A stretch of 64,000 bases of DNA from Microlunatus sagamiharensis. Lineage in GTDB: Bacteria; Actinomycetota; Actinomycetes; Propionibacteriales; Propionibacteriaceae. Positions within the stretch are counted from its first letter, which is position 1. The number at the start of each line of letters is the position of its first letter. The DNA is taken from the NCBI RefSeq assembly GCF_900105785.1, contig NZ_LT629799.1, forward strand, positions 930,001 to 994,000. Reading direction: 5' to 3'. Below the pieces are notes generated by a model. It saw nothing but the letters and a program-made list of their open reading frames with translations, made no database searches and was not told the origin of the DNA. The position numbers were made by a program, and so were the translations under genes. Below, one piece after another: positions 8,633 to 62,877 of the stretch.

Positions 8633-9184
8633 TCACGCCCCGAGGCCCGCGTGCAGGCGGAGCTGCTCGAGCGTGACCGAGCCGTCCTCGGCGCCGATCG
8701 TGCGGCTCGCGCCGTCGGGCTCCCAGCCCGCCACGGCGAGGAACCGGCGCAGCTCGACGTCACCGGCGAGCACCCACCACCGGGCGCGGGCGAAGCCGTC
8801 GGCCCGCAGGGTGTCGGCGCAGGCGTTCAGGAGGCGGGAGCCGTGGCCCTGGCGCCGTGCCGGCGGGTCGACCCAGAACTGGTCCACCTCGCCGTCCGCC
8901 CCGGCCCGGGCGTCCGGGTCGTCCGAGGGGCCGGTCGTCGCGAAGCCCACCACCCGGCCCTGGCCCGCCACGGCGACGAGGACGCGACGGCGGGCGTCGG
9001 CCGGACGGGCCAGCACCTGCTCCCAGGCCCGCACCATGGCCGGCTCGTCGACCTCGGCGAGCAGCGCGCCGCCGAGCTCCGGCGGCAGGTCGAGCCAGGC
9101 CCGGCGCTGCACCGCCGCGACCGCGGACGCCTCGCCCGGCCAGGCGAGCCGTACGGAGTCCGCGACGGGCTGGGGTTCGGGCAC
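8633..9184 (-). CDS. GNAT-family N-acetyltransferase
   Basis: An 183-aa acetyl-CoA-dependent acyltransferase. The acetyl-CoA-binding motif A is RRQGHGSRLLNA near residue 112, preceded by the VDQFWVDPPA strand. The substrate is unknown. The GTG start is exactly 6 nt downstream of a TAGCAT hexamer, so it is probably read from a leaderless mRNA. It is divergent from the MFS transporter and convergent with the DUF2993 gene. Confidence 0.85.
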   Translation of the reverse strand: MPEPQPVADSVRLAWPGEASAVAAVQRRAWLDLPPELGGALLAEVDEPAMVRAWEQVLARPADARRRVLVAVAGQGRVVGFATTGPSDDPDARAGADGEVDQFWVDPPARRQGHGSRLLNACADTLRADGFARARWWVLAGDVELRRFLAVAGWEPDGASRTIGAEDGSVTLEQLRLHAGLGA

Positions 9185-9196: not shown

Positions 9197-9270
9197 CCGA
9201 GACGCCGGTGTGGTCCAGATCACGCGGCACCAGCCGTAACGACCCCGGCGACCGACGCGATGTCCTGGTC

Positions 9271-9318
9271 GAAGTCGGCGCCCTACCTGAACCCCCGAGC
9301 AGGCATGGCGCCGACTTC
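9271..9318. repeat. Hairpin element, copy 1, with conserved loop
   Basis: A perfect 12-bp stem (GAAGTCGGCGCC, 9271-9282, with GGCGCCGACTTC, 9307-9318) encloses a 24-nt loop. The loop contains CCTGAACCCCCGAGCAG at 9286-9302. The same 17-mer is the loop of a second hairpin at 11518-11560 whose stem is different. The element lies 43 bp upstream of the MFS -10 box. Confidence 0.6.
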
Positions 9319-9360
9319 TTCGCGTCCCGACCCGCCTGGAGCACCTCGGCGGCACCGCCC

Positions 9361-9366
9361 TAGGTT
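9361..9366 (+). promoter_or_regulatory. Candidate -10 element for the MFS gene
   Basis: TAGGTT in CCTAGGTTGGCG, about 47 nt before ATG 9414. It resembles the dapB -10 context. No -35 is clear. Confidence 0.4.
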
Positions 9367-9413
9367 GGCGGGGCCCGTCGACCGGCGGGCGTCGGCACCC
9401 CGAGGAGCACCCG

Positions 9414-10868
9414 ATGGCGGCTGAGACCGACCGGACCGACCAGACCGACGAGACCGACCAGTCCCAGCAGACCGAGGGAGACGGCGCCTCCGGCGTCTCC
9501 CAGGCGCTCACCGGGCGGATGCTCATGGCGGCCGTGGTCTCGGCGATCTCCGCGCTGCTGTACGGCTACGACACCGGCATCATCTCCGGCGCGCTGCTGC
9601 AGATCCGGCGCGACTTCGAGACCGGCAACGGCATGGAGCAGGTGATCGCGGCCAGCATTCTCTTCGGCGCGGTGCTCGGCGCCTTCACCTGCAGCCAGCT
9701 CTCGGAGCGGCAGGGCCGCCGCAAGACGATCCTCATCGTCTCCGGGGTGTTCGTGCTGGGCACGCTGCTCTGCTCCGTCGCCCCCAACGCGACGGCGCTC
9801 TCGCTGGCCCGGATCGTGCTCGGGTTCGCGGTGGGCGGCGCGACCCAGGTCGTCCCGATGTACGTGGCCGAGCTCGCGCCGGCCCGCAAGCGCGGACGCC
9901 TCGTGCTCACCTTCCAGCTCGGCATCGGCGTCGGCATCGTGCTCGCCACCCTGGTCGGCGCCAGCGAGGCCTCGCCCTGGCGCGTCTCGGTGGGAGCCGC
10001 CGCGGTGCCGGCGGCGATCATGCTCGTCCTGATGCTTCGGCTGCCCGAGAGCCCGCGCTGGCTGGTCAAGGCCGACCGGCGCGACGACGCCCGGGAGGCC
10101 CTGCGCGGCGTGCGCGAGGACGGCAGCGACCTCGACGCCGAGCTCGACGAGATCGTGGGCCTCGAGGAGGAGGAGCGCTCCGCCGGGCGGGAGAACCGCG
10201 GCTGGCGCGGTCTGCGGAAGCCCTGGGTCCGCCCGGCGCTGGTCGTGGGCTGCGGCATCGCCGTCTTCACCCAGCTCAGCGGCATCGAGATGATCATTTA
10301 CTACGCGCCCACGATCCTGACCGACAACGGCTTCTCCGAGAGCGCCGCCCTGCGGGTCAGCCTCGCGCTGGGCGTGACCTACCTGGTGATGATGATCGTG
10401 GGCCTGACGATCGTCGACAAGGTCGGGCGCCGTCGGCTCACGCTGATCATGGTCCCGGGCGCCGCGCTCGCCCTGGCCGTGCTCGGCACGCTGTTCGTCA
10501 CCGGCCACAGCGGCCGCGGCGACATCGGCCTGATCGTCGCCTGCCTGGTCGTGTTCATGTTCTTCAACGCCGGTGGGCTGCAGCTGATGGGCTGGCTGAC
10601 GGGCAGCGAGATCTACCCGCTGGGCGTGCGCAGCGCCGGCACGAGCGCCCAGTCGATGACGTTGTGGGCCACGAACATGCTGATCACCCTGACCGTGCTG
10701 ACCATGATCGAGGGCATCGGCGTCGGCCCGACCATGTGGGTCTACGCCGGCTTCAACGTGGCGGCCTGGATCTTCGTCTTCCTGCGCATGCCCGAGCTGA
10801 CCGGGCACAGCCTCGAGGGTATCGAGAGCCGGCTGCGCGAGGGCCGCTTCAAGCCCAAGGACTTCTGA
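9414..10868 (+). CDS. MFS sugar-porter family transporter
   Basis: A 484-aa, 12-helix major facilitator of the sugar porter family (XylE/GalP/IolT type), probably a proton symporter in the membrane. Family signatures present are GYDTGIISGAL in helix 1, SERQGRRKTI in loop 2-3, PESPRWL after helix 6, and VDKVGRRRLT in loop 8-9. The first 25 residues are a Thr/Asp/Gln-rich repeat (TDRTDQTDETDQ) from tandem GACCGA-like DNA, an unusual cytoplasmic tail. The start has GAGGAG eight nt upstream. The substrate, a hexose, pentose or inositol, cannot be told. No metabolic gene is adjacent. Confidence 0.9.
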   Translation: MAAETDRTDQTDETDQSQQTEGDGASGVSQALTGRMLMAAVVSAISALLYGYDTGIISGALLQIRRDFETGNGMEQVIAASILFGAVLGAFTCSQLSERQGRRKTILIVSGVFVLGTLLCSVAPNATALSLARIVLGFAVGGATQVVPMYVAELAPARKRGRLVLTFQLGIGVGIVLATLVGASEASPWRVSVGAAAVPAAIMLVLMLRLPESPRWLVKADRRDDAREALRGVREDGSDLDAELDEIVGLEEEERSAGRENRGWRGLRKPWVRPALVVGCGIAVFTQLSGIEMIIYYAPTILTDNGFSESAALRVSLALGVTYLVMMIVGLTIVDKVGRRRLTLIMVPGAALALAVLGTLFVTGHSGRGDIGLIVACLVVFMFFNAGGLQLMGWLTGSEIYPLGVRSAGTSAQSMTLWATNMLITLTVLTMIEGIGVGPTMWVYAGFNVAAWIFVFLRMPELTGHSLEGIESRLREGRFKPKDF

Positions 10869-10886
10869 GCCCGTCGCTTGGGAGGG

Positions 10887-11483
10887 TCAGGAGTAGTACG
10901 GCTGGGTCTGCGCCGGGTCCGTCCGCACCACGTCGAGACCCGGGGTCCCGAGGAGCGCCGCCACCGCGGCCTCCTCGGCACCGACCCCCGCCCAGTGCGG
11001 GTCGACGTCGGCGGCGAGGCACCACCGGTGGTCGGTGGGCCAGACGAAGGCGGGCGGCACGAGCAGCCCGTCGCCGACGTCGCGCTCCCAGTCCTGGAGG
11101 TCGTCCAGCCGACCGTGGAGGAGCGCGTAGCGGCGCACCGAGCCGAGCTCGGCGTCGACGAGGTCCAGCAGGGGCAGCGCGGGCGGGATGGCGATGCTGC
11201 CGCCGTAGCCCTCCCAGACCGCACACCAGCAGTCGTCCGGCGTCGAGGTGAAGCCCGCGAGCACGGAGAGGGCCCGCCGGGCCTGGTCGAGGTCGCTCGG
11301 GCGGTCGTGGGGCAGGTCCTGGTCGGCCTCGGACTGCCCGGGCCGCACGGGGTCGGGGACGAAGCGCAGCCGCGCGTACGCGGCGAAGCCGTCGGGCCCG
11401 AGCCCCACCAGCCGCGTCCAGGGCACCGGGCTGCGGAGCAGCCAGTCCGCGGGTCCGAGGTCGTGCGACCAACGCAGGGCCAT
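10887..11483 (-). CDS. Hypothetical protein, 198 aa
   Basis: Not assigned to a family. ATG 11483 was chosen because a TACGGT hexamer lies exactly 6 nt upstream, indicating a leaderless mRNA. The frame stays open further upstream without start support. The protein is soluble, acidic and Trp-rich (MALRWSHDLG, DDCWCAVWEGYG, HRWCLAADVDPHW), with a central ALLHGRLDDL segment. The pattern resembles SMI1/immunity-like or regulatory proteins only loosely. It is convergent with the MFS gene and divergent from rnj. Confidence 0.7.
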   Translation of the reverse strand: MALRWSHDLGPADWLLRSPVPWTRLVGLGPDGFAAYARLRFVPDPVRPGQSEADQDLPHDRPSDLDQARRALSVLAGFTSTPDDCWCAVWEGYGGSIAIPPALPLLDLVDAELGSVRRYALLHGRLDDLQDWERDVGDGLLVPPAFVWPTDHRWCLAADVDPHWAGVGAEEAAVAALLGTPGLDVVRTDPAQTQPYYS

Positions 11484-11489
11484 CAGCGA

Positions 11490-11495
11490 ACCGTA
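11490..11495 (-). promoter_or_regulatory. -10 element of leaderless 198-aa gene
   Basis: TACGGT on the minus strand, then 6 nt (TCGCTG), then ATG 11483. Confidence 0.5.
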
Positions 11496-11517
11496 CGAGC
11501 CGCCGGAGGAGAAGGGA

Positions 11518-11560
11518 TCCACAGGGCCGCCTGAACCCCCGAGCAGACGGACCCTGTGGA
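11518..11560. repeat. Hairpin element, copy 2, with conserved loop
   Basis: TCCACAGGG (11518-11526) pairs with CCCTGTGGA (11552-11560), and CCG/CGG continues the stem past one bulged A. The loop is CCTGAACCCCCGAGCAG (11530-11546), identical over 17 nt to copy 1, while the stem is unrelated. It lies between the divergent 198-aa gene and rnj. Confidence 0.6.
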
Positions 11561-11646: not shown

Positions 11647-13332
11647 GTGGCTGGTACCCGACTGCAGACCCCTCCGCCCCTGGCACGCGACGCGATGCGC
11701 GTGACCCCGCTCGGCGGCCTCGGCGACATCGGCCGGAACATGACCGTGGTCGAGCACCACGGGCAGCTCCTGATCGTCGACTGCGGCGTGCTGTTCCCCG
11801 AGGACGACCACCCCGGCGTCGACCTGATCCTGCCCGGCTTCGGCGCGATCGCCGACCGCCTGGACGACGTCGTCGGGCTGGTGCTGACCCACGGGCACGA
11901 GGACCACATCGGCGCCGTGCCCTACCTGCTCAAGCAGCGTCCCGACATCCCGCTCATCGGTTCACGGCTGACCCTCGCGCTGCTGCGCGAGAAGTTCAAG
12001 GAGCACCGTCTCCGCAACACCGTCGAGCTCGTCGTGAGCGACGGCGAGCAGACGCAGGTCGGGGCGTTCGACCTCGAGTTCGTCGCGGTCAACCACTCGA
12101 TCCCCGACGCGCTCGCCGTGGCGATCAGCACCGAGGCCGGGCGCATCCTGCACACCGGCGACTTCAAGATGGACCAGCTGCCCCTCGACGGCCGGCTGAC
12201 GGACCTGCGGGCCTTCGCGCGGCTGGGGGAGGCCGGCGTCGACCTGTTCCTCGTCGACTCGACCAACGCCGAGGTGCCCGGCTTCACCACCCCCGAGCGC
12301 GACATCGCCCCCGCGCTGGACCGCGTCTTCGACCGCAGCAAGCAGCGCGTCATCGTCGCGTGCTTCGCCTCGCACGTGCACCGCGTGCAGCAGGTGCTGG
12401 ACTCCGCCGTGGCCCACGGGCGCAAGGTCGTCTACGTCGGCCGCTCGATGGTGCGCAACATGGGCGTCGCCCGCGACCTCGGCTACCTCAAGGTGCCGGC
12501 CAACACGCTCATCGAGATGCGCGACATCGAGAAGTTCCAGCCCCAGGACGTCGTCATCGTCTGCACGGGCTCGCAGGGCGAGCCGATGTCGGCGCTCTCG
12601 CGGATGGCCGCGAGCGAGCACCCCGTGATCGACCTGAAGCCGAACGACACCGTCGTGCTCGCCAGCTCCCTGATCCCCGGCAACGAGAACTCGGTCTACC
12701 GCGTGATCAACGGGCTGACCCGGCTCGGGGCCAAGGTCGTGCACAAGGGCAACGCCCTGGTCCACGTCTCCGGCCACGCCAGCGCGGGCGAGCTGCTCTA
12801 CTGCTACAACATCGTCAAGCCGCGCAACGTCATGCCGGTCCACGGCGAGGCGCGCCACCTCGTGGCCAACGCCGACCTCGCGGTGCAGACGGGTGTCCCG
12901 CGCAAGCGCACGATCCTGGCCGAGGACGGCACCGTGGTCGACCTGCACAGGGGCAAGGCCTCCGTGGTCGGCAAGGTCGACGCCGCGTACATCTTCGTGG
13001 ACGGCGCCACGGTCGGTGACATCTCCGAGGCCGCGCTGACCGACCGCAGGATCCTCGGCGAGGAGGGCTTCGTGTCCATCGTCGCGGTCGTCGACACCCG
13101 GACGGGCAAGGTCGTCAGCGGTCCCGACATCCACGCGCGCGGGTTCGTGGAGGGCGACACGGTGTTCGACCCCGTCCGCCCGCAGATCGTCACCGCGCTC
13201 GAGGCGGCGCTGGCCGACGGGACCGACGACACCTACCAGCTGCAGCAGGTCATCCGGCGGCGGATGGGGCGCTGGGTCAACGACACGCTCCGTCGGCGGC
13301 CGATGATCGTGCCGGTGGTCATCCAGACCTGA
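11647..13332 (+). CDS. rnj: Ribonuclease J
   Basis: RNase J is a metallo-beta-lactamase/beta-CASP ribonuclease with endo- and 5'-exonuclease activity in mRNA and rRNA processing. The 561-aa length from GTG 11647 matches the family. The zinc motif THGHEDHIGA is near residue 81, HTGDFKMDQ gives the next ligand, and the beta-CASP region has CTGSQGEPMSALSRMA and HVSGHAS. The reading frame is open much further upstream, but family similarity starts near MRVTPLGGLGDIGRN. dapA, its usual neighbour, is absent here. A strong terminator follows 7 nt after the stop. Confidence 0.95.
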   Translation: MAGTRLQTPPPLARDAMRVTPLGGLGDIGRNMTVVEHHGQLLIVDCGVLFPEDDHPGVDLILPGFGAIADRLDDVVGLVLTHGHEDHIGAVPYLLKQRPDIPLIGSRLTLALLREKFKEHRLRNTVELVVSDGEQTQVGAFDLEFVAVNHSIPDALAVAISTEAGRILHTGDFKMDQLPLDGRLTDLRAFARLGEAGVDLFLVDSTNAEVPGFTTPERDIAPALDRVFDRSKQRVIVACFASHVHRVQQVLDSAVAHGRKVVYVGRSMVRNMGVARDLGYLKVPANTLIEMRDIEKFQPQDVVIVCTGSQGEPMSALSRMAASEHPVIDLKPNDTVVLASSLIPGNENSVYRVINGLTRLGAKVVHKGNALVHVSGHASAGELLYCYNIVKPRNVMPVHGEARHLVANADLAVQTGVPRKRTILAEDGTVVDLHRGKASVVGKVDAAYIFVDGATVGDISEAALTDRRILGEEGFVSIVAVVDTRTGKVVSGPDIHARGFVEGDTVFDPVRPQIVTALEAALADGTDDTYQLQQVIRRRMGRWVNDTLRRRPMIVPVVIQT

Positions 13333-47006: not shown

Positions 47007-47031
47007 GCGCACCTGCTCGGGGGACTTGCGC
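47007..47031. repeat. Possible third, shorter copy of the conserved-loop hairpin
   Basis: GCGCA/TGCGC, a 5-bp stem, encloses a loop that on the minus strand reads CCCCCGAGCAGG. That shares 12 nt with the copy at 9271 and 11 nt with the copy at 11518. The match is short and could be chance. It lies in the 190-bp gene-free stretch before yraN, where nothing else was recognised. Confidence 0.3.
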
Positions 47032-56713: not shown

Positions 56714-57424
56714 GTGTCCGCCGCAGTCGTCGATCCCGTCCCGGACCAGCACCGTACGTCCCGTGCGGCTGGTCCGGCGGCGGCCGGCACCCTGGCGGAG
56801 CTGCGGCAGCGCGTGCACCGGATGCAGGGCGGGGCGAGCAGCCGCCGGCTGCCGGGGCTGACGCCCGAGCTCGACCTGGCGACCGGGTCGGCGTACGCCA
56901 CCGACAGCGCGAGCCTGGCGCTGGCCCTGCTCGCCGGGCCCTCCTCGGCCGGGGAGTGGGTGGGCGTGGTGGGGGCGCCCGACCTGGGCTACGAGGCGGC
57001 GGCCGGGCTGGGCGTCGACCTCGAGCGCACGATCGTCGTCCCGCACCCCGGCGAGCACTGGCTGAGCGTCGTCGCCGCGCTGGTCGACGTCGCGTCGGTG
57101 GTCCTCGTCCGCCCCGCCGGCCCGGTCGCCGAGCACCCGGCCGAGCGCCTGCGGGCGAGGCTCCGCACCAAGGACGCGGCACTGGTCTGCTGGGGCGAGT
57201 GGCCGCGCTGCGCGGCCCGGTTCTCCGTGCGCGAGTCGGCCTGGTCCGGGCTCGGGCGCGGGCACGGCCACCTGTCGGGGCGCCGGATGGTCGTCGAGGT
57301 CGGCCGTGCCGGGTCGACCCGGCAGTCGTTCGGTCTGCACCTGCCCGGCCGGGGCGGGGTCGAGCCGGTGGCGGCACCCGCGCCGGTCGCGCGGCGGCCG
57401 GTGGCCGTGGGAGCGGCCTGGTGA
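56714..57424 (+). CDS. imuA': ImuA'-like mutasome accessory protein
   Basis: A 236-aa protein with a RecA/SulA-like layout but a degenerate nucleotide site. In mycobacteria ImuA' works with ImuB and DnaE2 in damage-induced mutagenesis. LAELRQRVHRMQ at the N-terminus, WVGVVGAPDLGYEAAAGLG in place of Walker A, VVLVRPAGP and WSGLGRGHGHLSGRRMVVEV are visible. GTG 56714 was chosen because the earlier in-frame GTG at 56696 lies inside the LexA box. The promoter makes the mRNA essentially leaderless. The stop overlaps imuB by 4 nt. Confidence 0.85.
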   Translation: MSAAVVDPVPDQHRTSRAAGPAAAGTLAELRQRVHRMQGGASSRRLPGLTPELDLATGSAYATDSASLALALLAGPSSAGEWVGVVGAPDLGYEAAAGLGVDLERTIVVPHPGEHWLSVVAALVDVASVVLVRPAGPVAEHPAERLRARLRTKDAALVCWGEWPRCAARFSVRESAWSGLGRGHGHLSGRRMVVEVGRAGSTRQSFGLHLPGRGGVEPVAAPAPVARRPVAVGAAW

Positions 57425-59139
57425 GCACGCTGCTGACCCTGGACGAGCCCGGCACCCCGGACGTCCCGGGTGGCCCGGCTGTCCCTGACGAGAGCCCGGA
57501 CGAGAGCCCGGTCGGTGGTGCGCGGCCCGTCCGGACGAGCCAGTCGACGGGGAAGGCGGCCGCGCCCCGGGTGATGGTGGTCTGGTGCCCCGACTGGCCC
57601 GTCGTGGCCGCGTCGGCCGAGCTCGGGCTGGCGGTCACCGACCCGGTCGCGGTGATCGAGGCGGGCGAGGTCCACGCGTGCTCGGAGGAGGCGCGCCGCG
57701 ACGGGGTCCGGCGCGGGATGCGGCGCCGCGACGCCGTCGCGCACTGCCCCGACCTGGTCTGCGTCGACCACAGCCCCGAGCGCGACGTGCGGGCGTTCGA
57801 GGCCGTGCTGGCCGCGGTCGAGCAGGTCAGCGCGACGGTCACGCTGATCCGGCCGGGGCTGTGCGCCCTGGGGGTGCCGCGGCGCTTCTACGGCGGCGAG
57901 AAGGAGGCCGCGGCGGTCGTGGCCGAGCACCTGGTCGCCGCCGGGGTCTGGGACTGCCGCGCGGGGATCGCCGACGGGATGTTCACCGCCGAGCAGGCCG
58001 CCAAGCAGGCCGCGCCGCAGGAGAGCGTCGTGGTGCCCGCCGGCGGGTCGCGCCGCTTCCTGTCCCGGCTCCCGGTCGCGGTCCTCGACGACCTCGAGCA
58101 GGTGAGCCTCTTCCGCCGGCTCGGGCTGCGGACGCTGGGCGACCTGGCGGCGCTGCCGGTGCGCGACGTCGCGACGCGCTTCGGCGCCCCCGGCGCCTGG
58201 CTCCACCGGTTGGCGCGCGGGGCGGACGGGCGTCCGGCGGTGCCCCGCCAGCCGCCGCGCGAGCTCGACGCCCACGTGGACTTCGCCCCCGGGCTGGAAA
58301 CGATCGAGCCGATCGCCTTCAGCACCCGACGCACCGCCGAGGCCTTCGTGGCCCGGCTGTCGGAGCACGGGCTGGTGTGCAGCGAGGTGCGCATCGAGGT
58401 GAGCGGCGAGCGGGGCTGGCTCGGCTCGCGGGTGTGGGCGCACCCGCGCTGGTTCAACGCCGCCGACCTCGTCGACCGGCTCTACTGGCAGCTGCAGGGC
58501 GACCCGGCGCCGGAGCCGGTCGAGACCGTGCGCATCGTCCCCGAGTCGGTGGAGTCGCTGGCCGACCACGGCGAGGGGCTGTGGGGGAGCGCGCCCGACG
58601 AGCGGATCGTGCGTGGCGTCGCCCGGCTGCAGGGGATGCTCGGTCCCGAGCAGGTGCTCGTCCCGTCGCTGCAGGGCGGCCGCAGCCCGCGCGACCGCCA
58701 GGCCCTGACCCCGTGGGGCGAGCGGGCCGCCGACCACCGGCCCGCCGGGCTGCCCTGGCCGGGCAGCCTCCCGCCGCCGGCGCCGACCCGCGTCCTGCCC
58801 GAGCCGCTGCCCGCGGTGGTGCTGTCGGCCGAGGGGATGCCGGTGCGCCTGACCGGGCGGGGTGCCGTCTCCAGCGAGCCCGTGCACGTCCGGGTCGGCC
58901 GGCCCGACCGGCCTGCCGGCCGGCGCGCGGCGACGGCTCCGGCGGGTCAGGCCTCCGGCACCGGCACCACCGACCTGCTGGTGGACGCCTGGGCCGGGCC
59001 CTGGCCGATCGACGAGCTCTGGTGGGACCCGCAGGCCGCCCGGCAGGTCGCACGCTTCCAGGTCGTCGCGGTCGACGGCACGGCGTGGCTGCTGCTCGTC
59101 GAGGACGGCCAGTGGTGGGTGGAGGCGCGCTATGAGTGA
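57421..59139 (+). CDS. imuB: ImuB, inactive Y-family polymerase homologue
   Basis: A 572-aa Y-family DNA polymerase relative acting as the scaffold between the beta clamp, ImuA' and DnaE2. The palm begins VMVVWCPDWPVVA (51-63). Where active enzymes have an S-I/L-D-E catalytic motif, this has GLCALGVPRRFYGG (about 146-159), so the acidic residues are lost as expected for ImuB. A clamp-binding-like QALTPWG lies at 427-433. An extra 45-residue Pro/Glu-rich leader precedes the palm. GTG 57421 overlaps imuA'. Confidence 0.92.
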   Translation: MSTLLTLDEPGTPDVPGGPAVPDESPDESPVGGARPVRTSQSTGKAAAPRVMVVWCPDWPVVAASAELGLAVTDPVAVIEAGEVHACSEEARRDGVRRGMRRRDAVAHCPDLVCVDHSPERDVRAFEAVLAAVEQVSATVTLIRPGLCALGVPRRFYGGEKEAAAVVAEHLVAAGVWDCRAGIADGMFTAEQAAKQAAPQESVVVPAGGSRRFLSRLPVAVLDDLEQVSLFRRLGLRTLGDLAALPVRDVATRFGAPGAWLHRLARGADGRPAVPRQPPRELDAHVDFAPGLETIEPIAFSTRRTAEAFVARLSEHGLVCSEVRIEVSGERGWLGSRVWAHPRWFNAADLVDRLYWQLQGDPAPEPVETVRIVPESVESLADHGEGLWGSAPDERIVRGVARLQGMLGPEQVLVPSLQGGRSPRDRQALTPWGERAADHRPAGLPWPGSLPPPAPTRVLPEPLPAVVLSAEGMPVRLTGRGAVSSEPVHVRVGRPDRPAGRRAATAPAGQASGTGTTDLLVDAWAGPWPIDELWWDPQAARQVARFQVVAVDGTAWLLLVEDGQWWVEARYE

Positions 59140-59194
59140 GCCCACGCCCGGGCCCACGTCCCCGTCCTGCGACCAGGCGGGCAGGGCCGCCTGA
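59132..59194 (+). CDS. Possible 20-residue coupling ORF between imuB and dnaE2
   Basis: ATG 59132 lies inside the end of imuB (8-nt overlap). It reads 20 codons (MSEPTPGPTS...), and its TGA shares bases with the dnaE2 ATG at 59194 (TGATG). It bridges the only gap in an otherwise overlapping operon and could keep ribosomes loaded onto dnaE2. The peptide itself is Pro/Ser-rich and probably has no function. Confidence 0.35.
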   Translation: MSEPTPGPTSPSCDQAGRAA

Positions 59195-62100
59195 TGGGGT
59201 GGAGCAACCCGCCGCAGAGCTGGTCCGACCTCGAGCGCGCCCTGTCGGGTCGGCGTCCCAAGCCGTCGACGGCACCACGGCCCGACCCCCGGCGGACGCA
59301 GCCGGGCGAGGACCTGCCCTTCGACCCGCCCGACGACGCACCCCACGGCACACCTGACGGCCGGCCGGTCGACCTGGTCCGCCCCAGCGAACCGGCACCG
59401 CCGCAGCGCCGTCCGAGCCTCGACCACCCCGGTGACGACAGCGCGCCCGGCTACTCCCACAAGCGGCCTGCGTACAGCGTCCCCGAGGCGCGGCCGGACT
59501 CGCCCGACGAGCCGTACGTGCCCTACGCCGAGCTGCACGCGCACAGCGACTTCAGCTTCCTCGACGGGGCGAGCGACCCGGAGTCGCTGATCGAGGAGGC
59601 GGCCCGGCTGCGGCTGGACGGGCTGGCGCTCACCGACCACGACGGCTTCTACGCCGCGGCGCGCTTCGCCGAGGCGGCCAAGGCGTACGCGCTCTCCACC
59701 GTCTACGGCGCCGAGCTCTCGCTGGGCCTGACCGTGCCCCAGAACGGGGTCGCCGACCCCGAGGGGGAGCACCTGCTGGTGCTGGCGCGCGGGGTCGAGG
59801 GCTACCACCGGCTGTCGTCGGCCATCACCGCCGCCCAGCTGCGCGGCGACGAGAAGGGTCGCCCGCTCTACGACCTCGACGAGCTGGCCGAGCGGGCCGA
59901 CGGACACTGGCTCGTCCTGTCGGGCTGCCGCAAGGGCCCGCTGCGCTCGGCGCTCCACCGCCACGCCGAGGCCGGGCTGCCGACCCGCACCGGGATCGAC
60001 GCGGCGGGGCGGGCGCTGGACGACCTCGTGCGGAGGTTCGGCCGCGACAACGTAGCGGTGGAGATCAGCGACGCCGGGCTGCCCACCGACTCGACCACCC
60101 ACGACGTGCTGGCCGGGCTCGCCGCCGAGCGGCGGATGGCGCTGGTGGCGACGCAGAACGTGCACTTCGCGACCCCCGACGAGCGCCGCCTGGCCGCGGC
60201 GATGGCCGCGGTCCGGGCGCGGCGCAGCCTGACCGAGATGGACGGCTGGCTGCCGCCGCCGGGGGCGCACCTGCGCTCGGGCCACGAGATGGCGCAGCGC
60301 TTCGCCCGCTTCCCCGGCGCGGTGGCGACCTCGGTGCGGCTGGCCGGCGAGTGCGCCTTCGACCTGCAGCAGGCCAAGCCCCGTCTGCCCAAGCAGCGGG
60401 TCCCGCCCGGCCACACGCCGGCGACGTGGCTGCGCGAGCTGTGCCGGCGTGGCCTGGAGGAGCGCTACCCGCCCGAGCGCCACGCGGTGGCGCGCGACCG
60501 GCTCGAGCGCGAGCTCGCCGTCATCGAGGAGAAGGACTTCCCCGGCTACTTCCTGATCGTCCGCGACATGGTCGCCTTCGCCCGCGAGCAAGGGATCCTC
60601 TGCCAGGGCCGCGGCTCGGCGGCCAACTCGGTCGTCTGCTACGTCCTCATGGTCACCGCGGTCGACCCGATCCTCTACGACCTGCCGTTCGAGCGGTTCC
60701 TCTCGGTCAACCGCGACGAGGAGCCCGACATCGACGTCGACTTCGACTCCGACCGCCGTGAGGAGGTGATCCAGGAGGTCTACCGCCGCTACGGCCGGCA
60801 CAACGCGGCGCAGGTCGCCAACGTCATCAGCTACCGCCCCAAGTCGGCGGTGCGCGACATGGCCAAGGCCCTCGGCCACTCGACCGGGCAGCAGGACGCC
60901 TGGTCCAAGCAGATCGACTCGTGGGGCACCGTGAACGTCAACGGCCACGCCGAGCAGCACGACCACGACATCCCGACGGCGGTCGTCGACCTGGCCGAGC
61001 AGCTGCTCCGCGCTCCGCGCCACCTGGGCATCCACTCCGGGGGCATGGTCCTGACCGAGCGCCCGGTCGGGGAGGTCGTGCCCATCGAGCGCGGTCGCAT
61101 GGACCAGCGCACGGTGCTGCAGTGGGACAAGGACTCCTGCGCCTGGATGGGCCTGGTCAAGTTCGACTTCCTCGGGCTCGGCATCCTCGCCGCGATCCAG
61201 TACACCCTCGACCTCGCCGCCGACCGGGTCGGGGAGCGCTGGGACCTCGACTCGATCCCCAAGGAGGAGCAGGGGGTCTACGACATGCTCTGCCGGGCCG
61301 ACTCGATCGGGGTGTTCCAGGTCGAGAGCCGGGCCCAGATCGGCACGCTGCCCCGTCTGCAGCCGCGGCGCTTCTACGACCTCGTCGTCGAGATCGGGCT
61401 GATCAGGCCGGGCCCGATCCAGGGCGGCGCCGTGCACCCCTACATCCGGCGGGCGACGGGCAAGGAGGAGATCACCTACCTGCACCCGGCGCTCAAGCCG
61501 GTGCTCGAGCGCACCAAGGGCATCCCACTCTTCCAGGAGCAGCTGATGCAGATCGCCATGACCGTGGGCGGCTGCACCGGCGACGACGCCGACCTCCTGC
61601 GGCGGGCGATGGGCTCCAAGCGCGGGGTGGAGAAGATCGAGCGGCTGCGCACGACGCTGTACGAGGGGATGGCCTTGCACGGCATCGTCGGCGACCTGGC
61701 CGACGACATCTACGCGCGGATCCAGGCCTTCGCGAACTTCGGCTTCGCCGAGAGCCACTCGATCAGCTTCGGGCTGCTGGTCTACGCCTCGTCCTGGCTC
61801 AAGCTGCACTACCCGGGCGCGTTCCTGGCCGGGCTGCTGCGGGCGCAGCCGATGGGCTTCTACTCCTCGCAGTCGCTGGTCGCCGACGCCCGGCGCCACG
61901 GGGTGCAGGTGCGCCGGCCCGACATCGTCCGCTCCGACGTCGACGCCGACCTCGAGGTGCTCGAGGACGGCGGGACCCCGCCCCATGGCGCCCAGGGCGA
62001 CCCCGGAGAGGGACCGTGGGCCGGACCGCCGACGGGACGGGTGACGGCCATGGCCACGGGGATGGCCTCGTGCACGCTGCGCGACCAGCCACCGGTCGGG

Positions 62101-62877
62101 CCGTGGGTGCCCGGCAGCCCGGACCGGACGCACGAGCACCGGCGCGACGGGAGGTTCGCGGTGCGCCTCGGGCTGAGCGAGGTGCAGGGCATCGGGCGGG
62201 CCCAGGCCCAGCGCATCGTCGACGCCCGTGCCGACGGCCCGTTCACGAGCATCAACGACGTCGTCCGCCGCACGGGGCTCAGCGTCGCCCAGACCGAGGC
62301 GCTGGCCACGGCGGGTGCGTTCGACTCCTTCGGGCTGTCGCGGCGCCAGGCCCTGTGGAACGCCGGGTACGCCGACAGCGCCGACACCCTGCCCGGCACG
62401 GCGGTCGACGCGGCGCCGCCCGAGCTGCCGGGGATGAGCGCCGCGGAGCTGACCCTGGCCGACCTGTGGGCCACCCAGATCAGCCCCGACGACCACCCGG
62501 TCTCGCACCTGCGGCCGGTGCTGGACGAGCACGGGGTCCTCGCGGTGAGCACGCTCGGCAAGGGCCACGACCGCACCCGCGTCCGGGTGGCCGGGCTGGT
62601 CACCCACCGGCAGCGGCCCTCGACCGCGGGCGGGGTGACGTTCCTCAACCTGGAGGACGAGACGGGCATGCTGAACATCGTCTGCTCGCGCCCGATGTGG
62701 CAGCGCTTCGTGCGGGTCGGGCGGCGGACGAACGCCCTGCTGGTCCGCGGCACCGTCGAGCACGTCGACGGCGTGACCAACCTGGTCGCGGACCGCCTGG
62801 AGCCGCTCAGCGCGCTGTTCCCCAAGGAGACGACGGCCGCGATCCCGCAGAGCTACCGGTCGCGGGACTTCCGGTGA
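59194..62877 (+). CDS. dnaE2: Error-prone DNA polymerase III alpha subunit DnaE2
   Basis: The catalytic subunit of the SOS mutasome (ImuC). The 1227-aa protein has an extra hydrophilic N-terminus of about 105 residues. The PHP domain follows (ELHAHSDFSFLDG, H115/H117). The polymerase palm has PDIDVDFDSDR (D512, D514) and the LGLGILAAIQ and RRAMGSKRG finger segments. Late helix-hairpin-helix (LSEVQGIGRAQAQRI) and OB-fold (VRVAGLVTHR, about 1131) domains end it. A Gly/Pro-rich insertion lies at about 925-985. AGAGC at 59216 is internal, so ATG 59194 depends on coupling rather than a strong ribosome-binding site. Confidence 0.95.
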   Translation: MGWSNPPQSWSDLERALSGRRPKPSTAPRPDPRRTQPGEDLPFDPPDDAPHGTPDGRPVDLVRPSEPAPPQRRPSLDHPGDDSAPGYSHKRPAYSVPEARPDSPDEPYVPYAELHAHSDFSFLDGASDPESLIEEAARLRLDGLALTDHDGFYAAARFAEAAKAYALSTVYGAELSLGLTVPQNGVADPEGEHLLVLARGVEGYHRLSSAITAAQLRGDEKGRPLYDLDELAERADGHWLVLSGCRKGPLRSALHRHAEAGLPTRTGIDAAGRALDDLVRRFGRDNVAVEISDAGLPTDSTTHDVLAGLAAERRMALVATQNVHFATPDERRLAAAMAAVRARRSLTEMDGWLPPPGAHLRSGHEMAQRFARFPGAVATSVRLAGECAFDLQQAKPRLPKQRVPPGHTPATWLRELCRRGLEERYPPERHAVARDRLERELAVIEEKDFPGYFLIVRDMVAFAREQGILCQGRGSAANSVVCYVLMVTAVDPILYDLPFERFLSVNRDEEPDIDVDFDSDRREEVIQEVYRRYGRHNAAQVANVISYRPKSAVRDMAKALGHSTGQQDAWSKQIDSWGTVNVNGHAEQHDHDIPTAVVDLAEQLLRAPRHLGIHSGGMVLTERPVGEVVPIERGRMDQRTVLQWDKDSCAWMGLVKFDFLGLGILAAIQYTLDLAADRVGERWDLDSIPKEEQGVYDMLCRADSIGVFQVESRAQIGTLPRLQPRRFYDLVVEIGLIRPGPIQGGAVHPYIRRATGKEEITYLHPALKPVLERTKGIPLFQEQLMQIAMTVGGCTGDDADLLRRAMGSKRGVEKIERLRTTLYEGMALHGIVGDLADDIYARIQAFANFGFAESHSISFGLLVYASSWLKLHYPGAFLAGLLRAQPMGFYSSQSLVADARRHGVQVRRPDIVRSDVDADLEVLEDGGTPPHGAQGDPGEGPWAGPPTGRVTAMATGMASCTLRDQPPVGPWVPGSPDRTHEHRRDGRFAVRLGLSEVQGIGRAQAQRIVDARADGPFTSINDVVRRTGLSVAQTEALATAGAFDSFGLSRRQALWNAGYADSADTLPGTAVDAAPPELPGMSAAELTLADLWATQISPDDHPVSHLRPVLDEHGVLAVSTLGKGHDRTRVRVAGLVTHRQRPSTAGGVTFLNLEDETGMLNIVCSRPMWQRFVRVGRRTNALLVRGTVEHVDGVTNLVADRLEPLSALFPKETTAAIPQSYRSRDFR

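What the first reader, a model, noticed from the sequence alone, without database searches (positions are those of the whole stretch)
9271..11560. Two intergenic hairpins with unrelated stems but an identical 17-nt loop
At 9271-9318 and 11518-11560 the loop CCTGAACCCCCGAGCAG is conserved exactly. The stems (12 bp GAAGTCGGCGCC and 9 bp TCCACAGGG plus CCG) share no sequence but both pair. A constant loop with freely varying stems is the mark of selection on structure plus loop, as in a structured RNA or a protein or recombinase target. It is not what a duplicated fragment looks like. Within the loop CTG/CAG can pair, leaving AACCCCCGAG exposed. Both copies precede plus-strand genes, and a shorter possible third lies at 47007-47031.
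Basis: seen in the sequence. Interest (0 to 1): 0.62.

Follow-up and report, generated by a model that had tools for sequence, protein, structure and literature searches.

The report
Multi-copy F6-like small RNA hairpins
The two hairpins belong to a family of short RNA genes in actinobacteria that keep one nearly unchanging C-rich loop on ever-changing stems, resemble the mycobacterial stress RNA F6, and have multiplied to about a dozen copies in this bacterium.

Summary
The genome (a Microlunatus relative) holds ten exact copies of the 17-mer and none with one or two mismatches. A covariance model finds 14 hits in this genome, hits in all 20 listed genomes of its genus, and mostly single copies in other actinobacterial families. 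Stems pair 90.7% with 199 double-sided changes.

What it is: 34 of 54 Microlunatus elements carry a sigma-factor-like promoter, GTAAC-N15-18-CGAT, just upstream, so the hairpin should start at the RNA's 5' end. A moderately U-rich stretch follows. This predicts a self-terminating RNA of about 60 nt. Mycobacterial sRNA F6 (Rfam RF01791) has the same promoter, hairpin and a near-identical loop. A model built without F6 finds 14 of 16 F6 loci tested. Rfam's F6 model matches ours only below threshold.

Outside the genus the element mostly sits in sense before dapA-rnj (RNase J). In Microlunatus 14 of 56 fetched elements lie beside rnj, and 38 stand elsewhere without preferred orientation to the next gene.

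Best reading: F6-type sRNAs acting through the loop as a base-pairing seed. Identity is well supported. The mechanism is inferred from F6, and no Microlunatus target was found.

The parts
9236..9261 (+). Promoter-like GTAACG-N16-CGAT upstream of copy 1
   Evidence: Exact match G000:939236-939261; 11 matches of GTAACGN{15,17}CGAT in the 4.4-Mb genome, 7 of them just upstream of an element; reversed-pattern control 0. Function as promoter is inferred.
9271..9318 (+). Hairpin copy 1: 12-bp outer stem GAAGTCGGCGCC, internal mismatches, CC-TG/CA-GG inner stem, loop AACCCCCGAG at 9290-9299
   Evidence: covariance model R1 64.1 bits, E 4.6e-14 in the window
9316..9321 (+). TTCTTC at the 3' end of copy 1 (first three bases still in the stem); weak candidate terminator tract
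   Evidence: sequence; T is 29-49% at +32 to +35 and +37 in 82 elements, 15% at +36, 4-22% from +38 to +69; termination not tested
11518..11560 (+). Hairpin copy 2: 9-bp outer stem TCCACAGGG, CCG/CGG, bulge, inner stem and loop AACCCCCGAG at 11534-11543, upstream of the RNase J gene; no GTAACG motif
   Evidence: R1 43.1 bits, E 1.1e-8 in the window
8633..9184 (-). GNAT acetyltransferase gene, recurrent neighbour of the rnj-side element in the genus
   Evidence: Pfam PF00583; gene context
9414..10868 (+). Sugar porter MFS transporter gene lying between the two copies
   Evidence: NCBIfam TIGR00879 above cut-off, Pfam PF00083
10887..11480 (-). Short gene of no recognised family between the two copies
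   Evidence: no Pfam or NCBIfam match at the cut-offs used; gene caller starts it at 11522 or at the equivalent of 11480 (L003)
11695..13332 (+). RNase J gene (rnj), recurrent downstream neighbour of the element
   Evidence: NCBIfam TIGR00649 above cut-off; Pfam RNase_J_b_CASP and RNase_J_C

Best explanation
Each hairpin is (or, for copy 2, derives from) a small RNA gene of an F6-like family. Shown by sequence: in most Microlunatus copies a GTAAC-N15-18-CGAT promoter-like element at a fixed distance, a 15-18 bp stem whose sequence is free to change as long as it pairs, a nearly invariant loop GAACCCCCGAGC, and a moderately U-rich stretch after the stem. Inferred: an ECF (SigD-type) sigma factor starts transcription a few bases before the hairpin; the hairpin helps to end its own transcription, giving an RNA of about 60 nt; the exposed loop, which contains ACCCCCGA, pairs with complementary 5' leaders of mRNAs and lowers their expression, as shown by others for the 8-nt loop seed of M. 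smegmatis F6. The stem only presents and protects the loop, which is why it drifts. The likely ancestral position is the leader of dapA-rnj; in Microlunatus the gene has multiplied into stand-alone copies that share one loop and, mostly, one promoter type.
For: Ten exact loops in the genome and 14 model hits at E<=0.001. Covariation: 199 double-sided changes, score 0.764 vs 0.203. Promoter: GTAAC-N15-18-CGAT in 34 of 54 Microlunatus elements, against 0.000145 per random placement in sampled genome DNA, and in 9 of 36 of the remaining loci (34 from other genera, two from G015 and G001); loci of families f12, f28, f36 and f43 have it. Tail: T enrichment just after the stem in 82 elements; one relative (L119) has six Ts directly after the stem. 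Independence: of 56 distinct Microlunatus elements, 38 stand away from rnj and GNAT, with the next gene in sense for 15 and antisense for 23; beside rnj, 2 of 14 point away from it. F6 link: model R2, built without F6, was run on 16 of the 30 fetched F6 loci and finds 14 at the F6 position, the top 13 hits all being F6; 12 of 16 score 25 bits or more, above the best of a 100-kb control (23.7 bits). In the 12 of those loci where the antisense strand is also listed, the same hairpin read antisense, with the same stem but another loop, scores 9.8-15.4 bits. F6 loci carry GTAAC at the same place in 25 of 30 and the complete promoter in 19 of 30. F6 loops are GACCCCCCGACC (20 of 30) or GACCCCCGACC (10 of 30); elements of four other genomes have GACCCCCCGAGC (L114, L115; L180, L181). 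M. smegmatis F6 has a GTAACG SigD-type promoter and an 8-nt loop seed verified by reciprocal mutation (PMC8583896, passages and section 2.3).
Against: No transcript data for any copy. Rfam's F6 model does not recognise the Microlunatus copies: no F6 match in G000 or G018 at E<=1e-4; in 21 relatives none is over the cut-off, 14 have something at E<=1, and the best (L144, E 4.2e-6) is a hairpin without the loop; the best F6 match to any element is 28.2 bits against a gathering score of 46. The seed complement TCGGGGGT lies in the leaders of 3 of 409 genes, two of them the antisense of the window elements themselves; no 8-nt loop complement on the coding strand around either rpf gene; loop-complement 6-mers are not enriched at 392 start codons, apart from a slight excess of GGGGGT. 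19 of 54 Microlunatus elements lack GTAAC at the expected place, as do copy 2 of the window and all 21 fetched Streptomyces-like loci that passed the filter. R2 gives only E 0.12-0.15 at 2 of 16 F6 loci (L223, L224), and L236 ranks below two non-F6 hits. The tail is less U-rich than a textbook terminator, and T at +28 to +31 partly belongs to the stem. One genome with F6 (G372) also has a hairpin with the exact GAACCCCCGAGC loop (L163, E 1.6e-4), which weakens a strict either-or distribution.
Confidence: 0.65

Rival explanations
1. A cis-acting leader element of the dapA-rnj or rnj mRNA, for example a site through which RNase J (or RNase III or RNase E) controls its own expression, like the RNase E leader hairpin of E. 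coli (recalled).
For: Outside Microlunatus the element lies in sense upstream of dapA in 24 of 26 loci by motif (L126-L143 as kept by the filter, L154-L162), one per genome in nearly all; in Microlunatus rnj follows in sense for 12 of 56.
Against: 38 of 56 Microlunatus copies are elsewhere, 23 of those with the next gene on the other strand; in two genomes the element beside rnj points away from it towards GNAT. F6, with the same kind of hairpin and promoter, sits elsewhere and is a free sRNA. It could still do both jobs.
Confidence: 0.14
2. An RNA decoy: the loop binds an RNA-binding protein and many copies titrate it, like CsrB-type sponges (recalled).
For: A constant loop with free stem and copy-number increase fit a protein ligand as well as a seed; no target complementarity enrichment was found.
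Against: F6 with nearly the same loop acts by base pairing in M. smegmatis; no candidate protein was looked for.
Confidence: 0.12
3. Only a transcription terminator, with the loop conserved by copying.
For: Strong stem, U-rich stretch after it; 23 of 38 stand-alone copies face a gene on the other strand.
Against: A promoter motif sits directly upstream in 34 of 54 Microlunatus copies; stems diverge fully while the loop stays nearly identical across families, so copying does not explain it.
Confidence: 0.05
4. A DNA-level element: recombinase, transposase or protein target spread as a mobile repeat.
For: Copies have multiplied in some species, occur in tandem (three at about 260-280 nt) and flank a transporter segment in the window.
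Against: Copies in one genome can have different stems; similarity is limited to promoter plus hairpin; no transposase was recognised by eye in the N-termini of neighbours (no family search was made); recurrent site at dapA-rnj in other families.
Confidence: 0.04

Closest known systems
F6 / SfdS / ncRv10243 small RNA (Rfam RF01791) of mycobacteria and relatives
   Same: One long hairpin, C-rich loop GACCCCC(C)GACC, TGTAACG-N16-CGAT-type promoter at the same distance; recognised by our model. 58-nt dominant RNA in M. tuberculosis (PMC8557902, part 1 of 5 read).
   Different: Loop ends GAGC rather than GACC; other genomic site (F6 locus L215 has a thiolase gene upstream; the element has dapA-rnj or rnj); up to 14 hits per genome in Microlunatus; below Rfam's F6 gathering score; the base-pairing target shown for M. 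smegmatis (rpfE2) has no complementary counterpart here.
6C sRNA of actinobacteria (C-rich loops that pair with mRNAs)
   Same: C-rich loop, C-rich-seed idea (title of Mai et al. 2019 seen in a reference list only).
   Different: 6C has two hairpins (recalled); no Rfam family reached its gathering score in the window.
RNase leader autoregulation (E. coli rne hairpin, recalled; Streptomyces rnc stem-loop; pnp leader)
   Same: Structured element upstream of an RNase gene; rnc and pnp autoregulation in Streptomyces is mentioned in PMC12096830 and PMC4681348 (passages).
   Different: Most Microlunatus copies are not in an rnj leader; no published rnj element came up in the searches (listings; passages of two papers).

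Membership tests
F6 sRNA (RF01791) | Score at or above the family's gathering threshold (46 bits) | tested here: not met
   Best element match 28.2 bits, E 0.099-0.27; no match in the window at gathering; none over cut-off in 21 relatives
F6 sRNA (RF01791) | Single long hairpin with the C-rich loop at its tip | tested here: met
F6 sRNA (RF01791) | Similarity recognised by a profile of the other group | tested here: met
   R2, built without F6, finds 14 of 16 F6 loci tested (of 30 fetched), 12 above the best score in 100 kb of control DNA; the reverse direction is only sub-threshold
F6 sRNA (RF01791) | GTAACG (SigD-type) promoter directly upstream, as reported for M. smegmatis | tested here: met
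   GTAAC-N15-18-CGAT in 34 of 54 Microlunatus elements and 19 of 30 F6 loci; copy 1 of the window has it, copy 2 lacks it
F6 sRNA (RF01791) | Transcript of about 58 nt, stress or starvation induced | not testable with these tools
   no RNA data
F6 sRNA (RF01791) | Loop pairs with the 5' leader of an rpf mRNA | tested here: not met
   two Rpf-domain genes in the genome; no 8-nt loop complement on the coding strand of the 3.2-kb loci around them
F6 sRNA (RF01791) | Mycobacterial site between fadA2 and fadE5 | not tested
   no systematic search for thiolase neighbours of the Microlunatus copies
Any Rfam 15 family | Match at gathering score in the window | tested here: not met
   0 matches
dapA-rnj cis leader element | Always in sense upstream of the regulated gene | tested here: not met
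   38 of 56 Microlunatus elements stand-alone, 2 divergent from rnj; outside Microlunatus met in 24 of 26 loci by motif

The most novel reading that the evidence does not exclude
F6 is one branch of an ancient actinobacterial sRNA family whose loop seed around ACCCCCGA has barely changed since the split of Streptomyces-like, Propionibacteriaceae and mycobacterial lineages. Its ancestral seat is the promoter-leader of dapA-rnj, which would tie RNase J output to production of the sRNA. In Microlunatus it has expanded into a set of about a dozen same-seed, different-stem sRNAs driven by one sigma factor, a dosage-type regulator comparable to Qrr sRNAs (recalled).
Probability: 0.45. Interest if true: 0.75.

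Novelty: new variant of a known kind. Interest (0 to 1): 0.6.

Why it matters
F6 is known from M. tuberculosis, M. smegmatis and, through Rfam, Rhodococcus. Linking it to a family spread over several actinobacterial families, with a seed-like loop kept while the stem changes, gives a comparative route to F6's conserved targets, including in harmless laboratory species. It also points to an RNA in front of the dapA-RNase J operon of Streptomyces-like genomes for which I found no description, and to a natural case of sRNA multiplication under one promoter type.

Tried and rejected
Anti-Shine-Dalgarno role: loop-complement 6-mers near 392 start codons are not above composition-matched controls, apart from a slight excess of GGGGGT at -20 to -1 (7 genes; control 4.6). 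F6-like target rpf: no complement. tRNA T-arm pairing: one tRNA-Val carries TCGGGGGTTC, the other five sites inspected are scattered; not pursued. F6-model hits L144-L147 do not show the CCCCCGA loop and were dropped. Of the weak hits, L164 and L165 look like ordinary terminators; L163 has the exact loop and 14 of 15 pairs but an unrelated site, and I left it undecided. L117 and L118 (G015, G001) have loop and stem, but the gene caller gave no neighbours; they are not in the Microlunatus counts. L031, L072 and L083 have the core without a matching stem and were dropped before building A1. A1 used 35 of 54 distinct sequences, all picked by their loop, so its loop invariance is by choice; A2 used 38, with the two window rows offset by two bases. 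Counts need at least 11 of 15 pairs in ungapped register, which leaves out two bulged copies, L003 (window copy 2) and L082; one search used no pair filter. Loci fetched are a capped part of all hits, so 56 is not the genus total. Literature: exact loop string (0 papers), C-rich loop set (0), RNase J plus dapA plus Streptomyces (0), three of four such terms (48 papers, 20 listed, passages of two read), SCO5744/SCO5745 (8 listed), F6 names (9 listed). Searches (Microlunatus and sRNA; SigD, GTAACG) returned noise and tell nothing. Only open-licence PMC papers were searched.
Full report
CHECK. The two hairpins are real and exact. The window lies at G000:C1:930001-994000. Two of the three-mismatch sites are GATGAACCCCCGAGCAT, in which the closing C-G has become A-T. 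A scan of named genomes for the 19-mer ACCTGAACCCCCGAGCAGG gave 27 stretches, 25 of them in Microlunatus, Friedmanniella or unnamed Propionibacteriaceae. The other two, L072 and L083, lack the stem.

STRUCTURE. Read ungapped around the loop, 41 elements pair in at least 33 of 41 cases at every stem position from 1 to 15 except position 3. Position 3 is a conserved A.C mismatch in 32 of 41. On 35 distinct sequences the 19-pair helix has 90.7% paired cells and 199 cells with changes on both sides. Its covariation score is 0.764, against 0.203 in shuffles and at most 0.186 when slid. Those 35 were picked by their loop, so its constancy there is by choice. Independent evidence for the loop is the lack of one- and two-mismatch copies in the genome and the loops of model hits in other families: GAACCCCCGAGC again, or GGACCCCCGAGC, GACCCCCCGAGC, GATCCCCCGAGC. 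With those sequences the closing T-A also becomes C-G.

DISTRIBUTION. Model R1 finds hits in 25 of 198 genomes of the family. They include all 20 listed genomes of the genus, with 1 to 14 hits each; the window genome has 14 at E<=0.001, the two weakest near 1e-4. In 394 genomes of the class, 49 have a match, 39 of them in one genus (g56) of large genomes with one hit each; the number of g56 genomes without a match was not printed. I take g56 as Streptomyces because the RNase J beside one element matches PDB chain 5a0t along its whole 528 residues with 1147.7 bits. That 5a0t is the S. coelicolor enzyme is recalled, in line with an abstract listed. A phylum sample with model R2 (built from A2) gave 16 of 396 genomes, 11 of them g56.

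CONTEXT. Outside the genus the element lies in sense before dapA in 24 of 26 loci by a protein motif; for L155 and L161 the motif was not found. RNase J follows dapA in 6 of the 7 longer stretches with dapA that I read (L175, L177-L181); in L176 the gene caller gave an implausible gene. In other Propionibacteriaceae genera the next gene is rnj (L114, L115, L119), dapA (L116) or GNAT (L120). In Microlunatus the equivalent site is GNAT - element - rnj. The window is a variant with a sugar porter and a short gene between two elements. Of 56 distinct Microlunatus elements in the fetched loci, 12 have rnj downstream in sense, 2 lie beside rnj but point away, 4 are beside GNAT only, and 38 stand alone. 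The next gene of the 38 is in sense for 15 and antisense for 23. That is how small RNA genes behave, not leader elements.

PROMOTER AND END. GTAACG followed after 15-17 bases by CGAT occurs 11 times in the whole genome, and 7 of these are just upstream of an element; the reversed control pattern occurs 0 times. GTAAC-N15-18-CGAT is present in 34 of 54 Microlunatus elements and 9 of 36 others, against 0.000145 for a random placement in sampled genome DNA. The 21 fetched Streptomyces-like loci that passed the filter lack GTAAC there, and those read share another conserved upstream block. After the stem, T makes up 29-49% at +32 to +35 and +37 (15% at +36) and 4-22% from +38 to +69, in 82 elements; at +28 to +31 T is 37-44% but partly belongs to the stem. 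One relative, L119, has the hairpin followed by TTTTTT. The predicted RNA is a hairpin of about 60 nt; no transcript data were available.

LINK TO F6. Searching loci of relatives with permissive Rfam settings gave one full-length but sub-threshold match to F6 (28.2 bits; gathering 46) on an element of family f12. Rfam F6 itself is found in 34 of 394 class genomes (31 over the cut-off), in families f7 and f48 plus one weak hit each in f3 and f14; the Microlunatus genomes in that sample, G000 and G018, have none. All 30 fetched F6 loci have the loop GACCCCCCGACC (20) or GACCCCCGACC (10); 25 have GTAAC at the expected place and 19 the complete promoter. R2, built without any F6, was run on 16 of these 30 and finds 14 at the F6 position (36.4 to 20.0 bits); at L223 and L224 it gives only E 0.12-0.15. 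The best score in 100 kb of control DNA was 23.7 bits, so 12 of 16 stand above it. Antisense strands of the same hairpins score 9.8-15.4 bits in the 12 of these loci where they are listed, so much of the signal lies outside the pairing. The 14-row alignment A3 shows promoter, hairpin and loop in register from Microlunatus to F6, window copy 2 without the promoter. The match-bearing families do not overlap, which fits one family with two branches; against a strict split, one F6 genome (G372) also has a weak hit with the exact element loop (L163). Convergence on the same loop and promoter is not excluded.

MECHANISM. Published work on M. smegmatis reports the SigD-type GTAACG promoter for F6 and shows that its 8-nt loop seed pairs with the 5' leader of MSMEG_4640 (rpfE2) and lowers expression, with reciprocal mutations (PMC8583896: passages and section 2.3 read). 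In M. tuberculosis F6 is SigF dependent, starvation induced and processed from 102 to 58 nt (PMC8557902: part 1 of 5 and passages read). By analogy I propose seed pairing through the loop. My own tests for targets were negative. The complement is not enriched near start codons. TCGGGGGT occurs in the leaders of 3 of 409 genes, two being the window elements read antisense and the third before an ATP-synthase-beta-like gene (named by recall). Neither rpf gene of the genome has a complementary site. The pairing step is therefore inference only.

NOVELTY. F6 is known in mycobacteria and reported through Rfam in Rhodococcus (PMC10986025, passage). I found no description of the dapA-rnj hairpin or of the Microlunatus copies in the searches listed under Tried and rejected, which cover open-licence papers only. 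I file it as a new variant of a known kind. It is not a member of RF01791 by Rfam's own threshold, but as far as sequence can tell it is built like F6.

Noticed in passing
L035 and L044, near the locus middle (G012, G006): The gene order rnj - GNAT is unchanged, but the element between them is inverted relative to other congeners and points towards GNAT.
   Followed up: partly
G000:C1:2625865-2626463: Three tandem elements about 260-280 nt apart, each with its own promoter-like motif, on the minus strand.
   Followed up: partly
L107, L100 and L113, some 15-30 nt before the GTAAC motif: Several rnj-side copies carry TGTGA-N6-TCACA-like or ATCAC half sites upstream of the promoter motif, reminiscent of CRP-family sites (recalled).
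   Followed up: no
L129, L135, L141 about 30-75 nt before the loop: Streptomyces-like copies share a conserved block GTGTCCGTATTGCGGCATTT...GTTCATCTAG in place of the GTAACG promoter; possibly a different promoter.
   Followed up: no
G000:C1:891367, 4038132, 4104411, 4388839: Four further GTAACG-N15-17-CGAT sites without the hairpin; downstream genes include a secreted CAP-like protein and a WhiB-like protein (named by recall), possible members of the same sigma regulon.
   Followed up: partly
L163 1501-1557 (G372): A hairpin with the exact GAACCCCCGAGC loop between two divergent genes in a genome that also carries F6; chance or a true second copy.
   Followed up: partly
window 56822-62877: Gene run that looks like an error-prone DnaE2-type polymerase cassette (named by recall from the N-terminus; not searched).
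   Followed up: no
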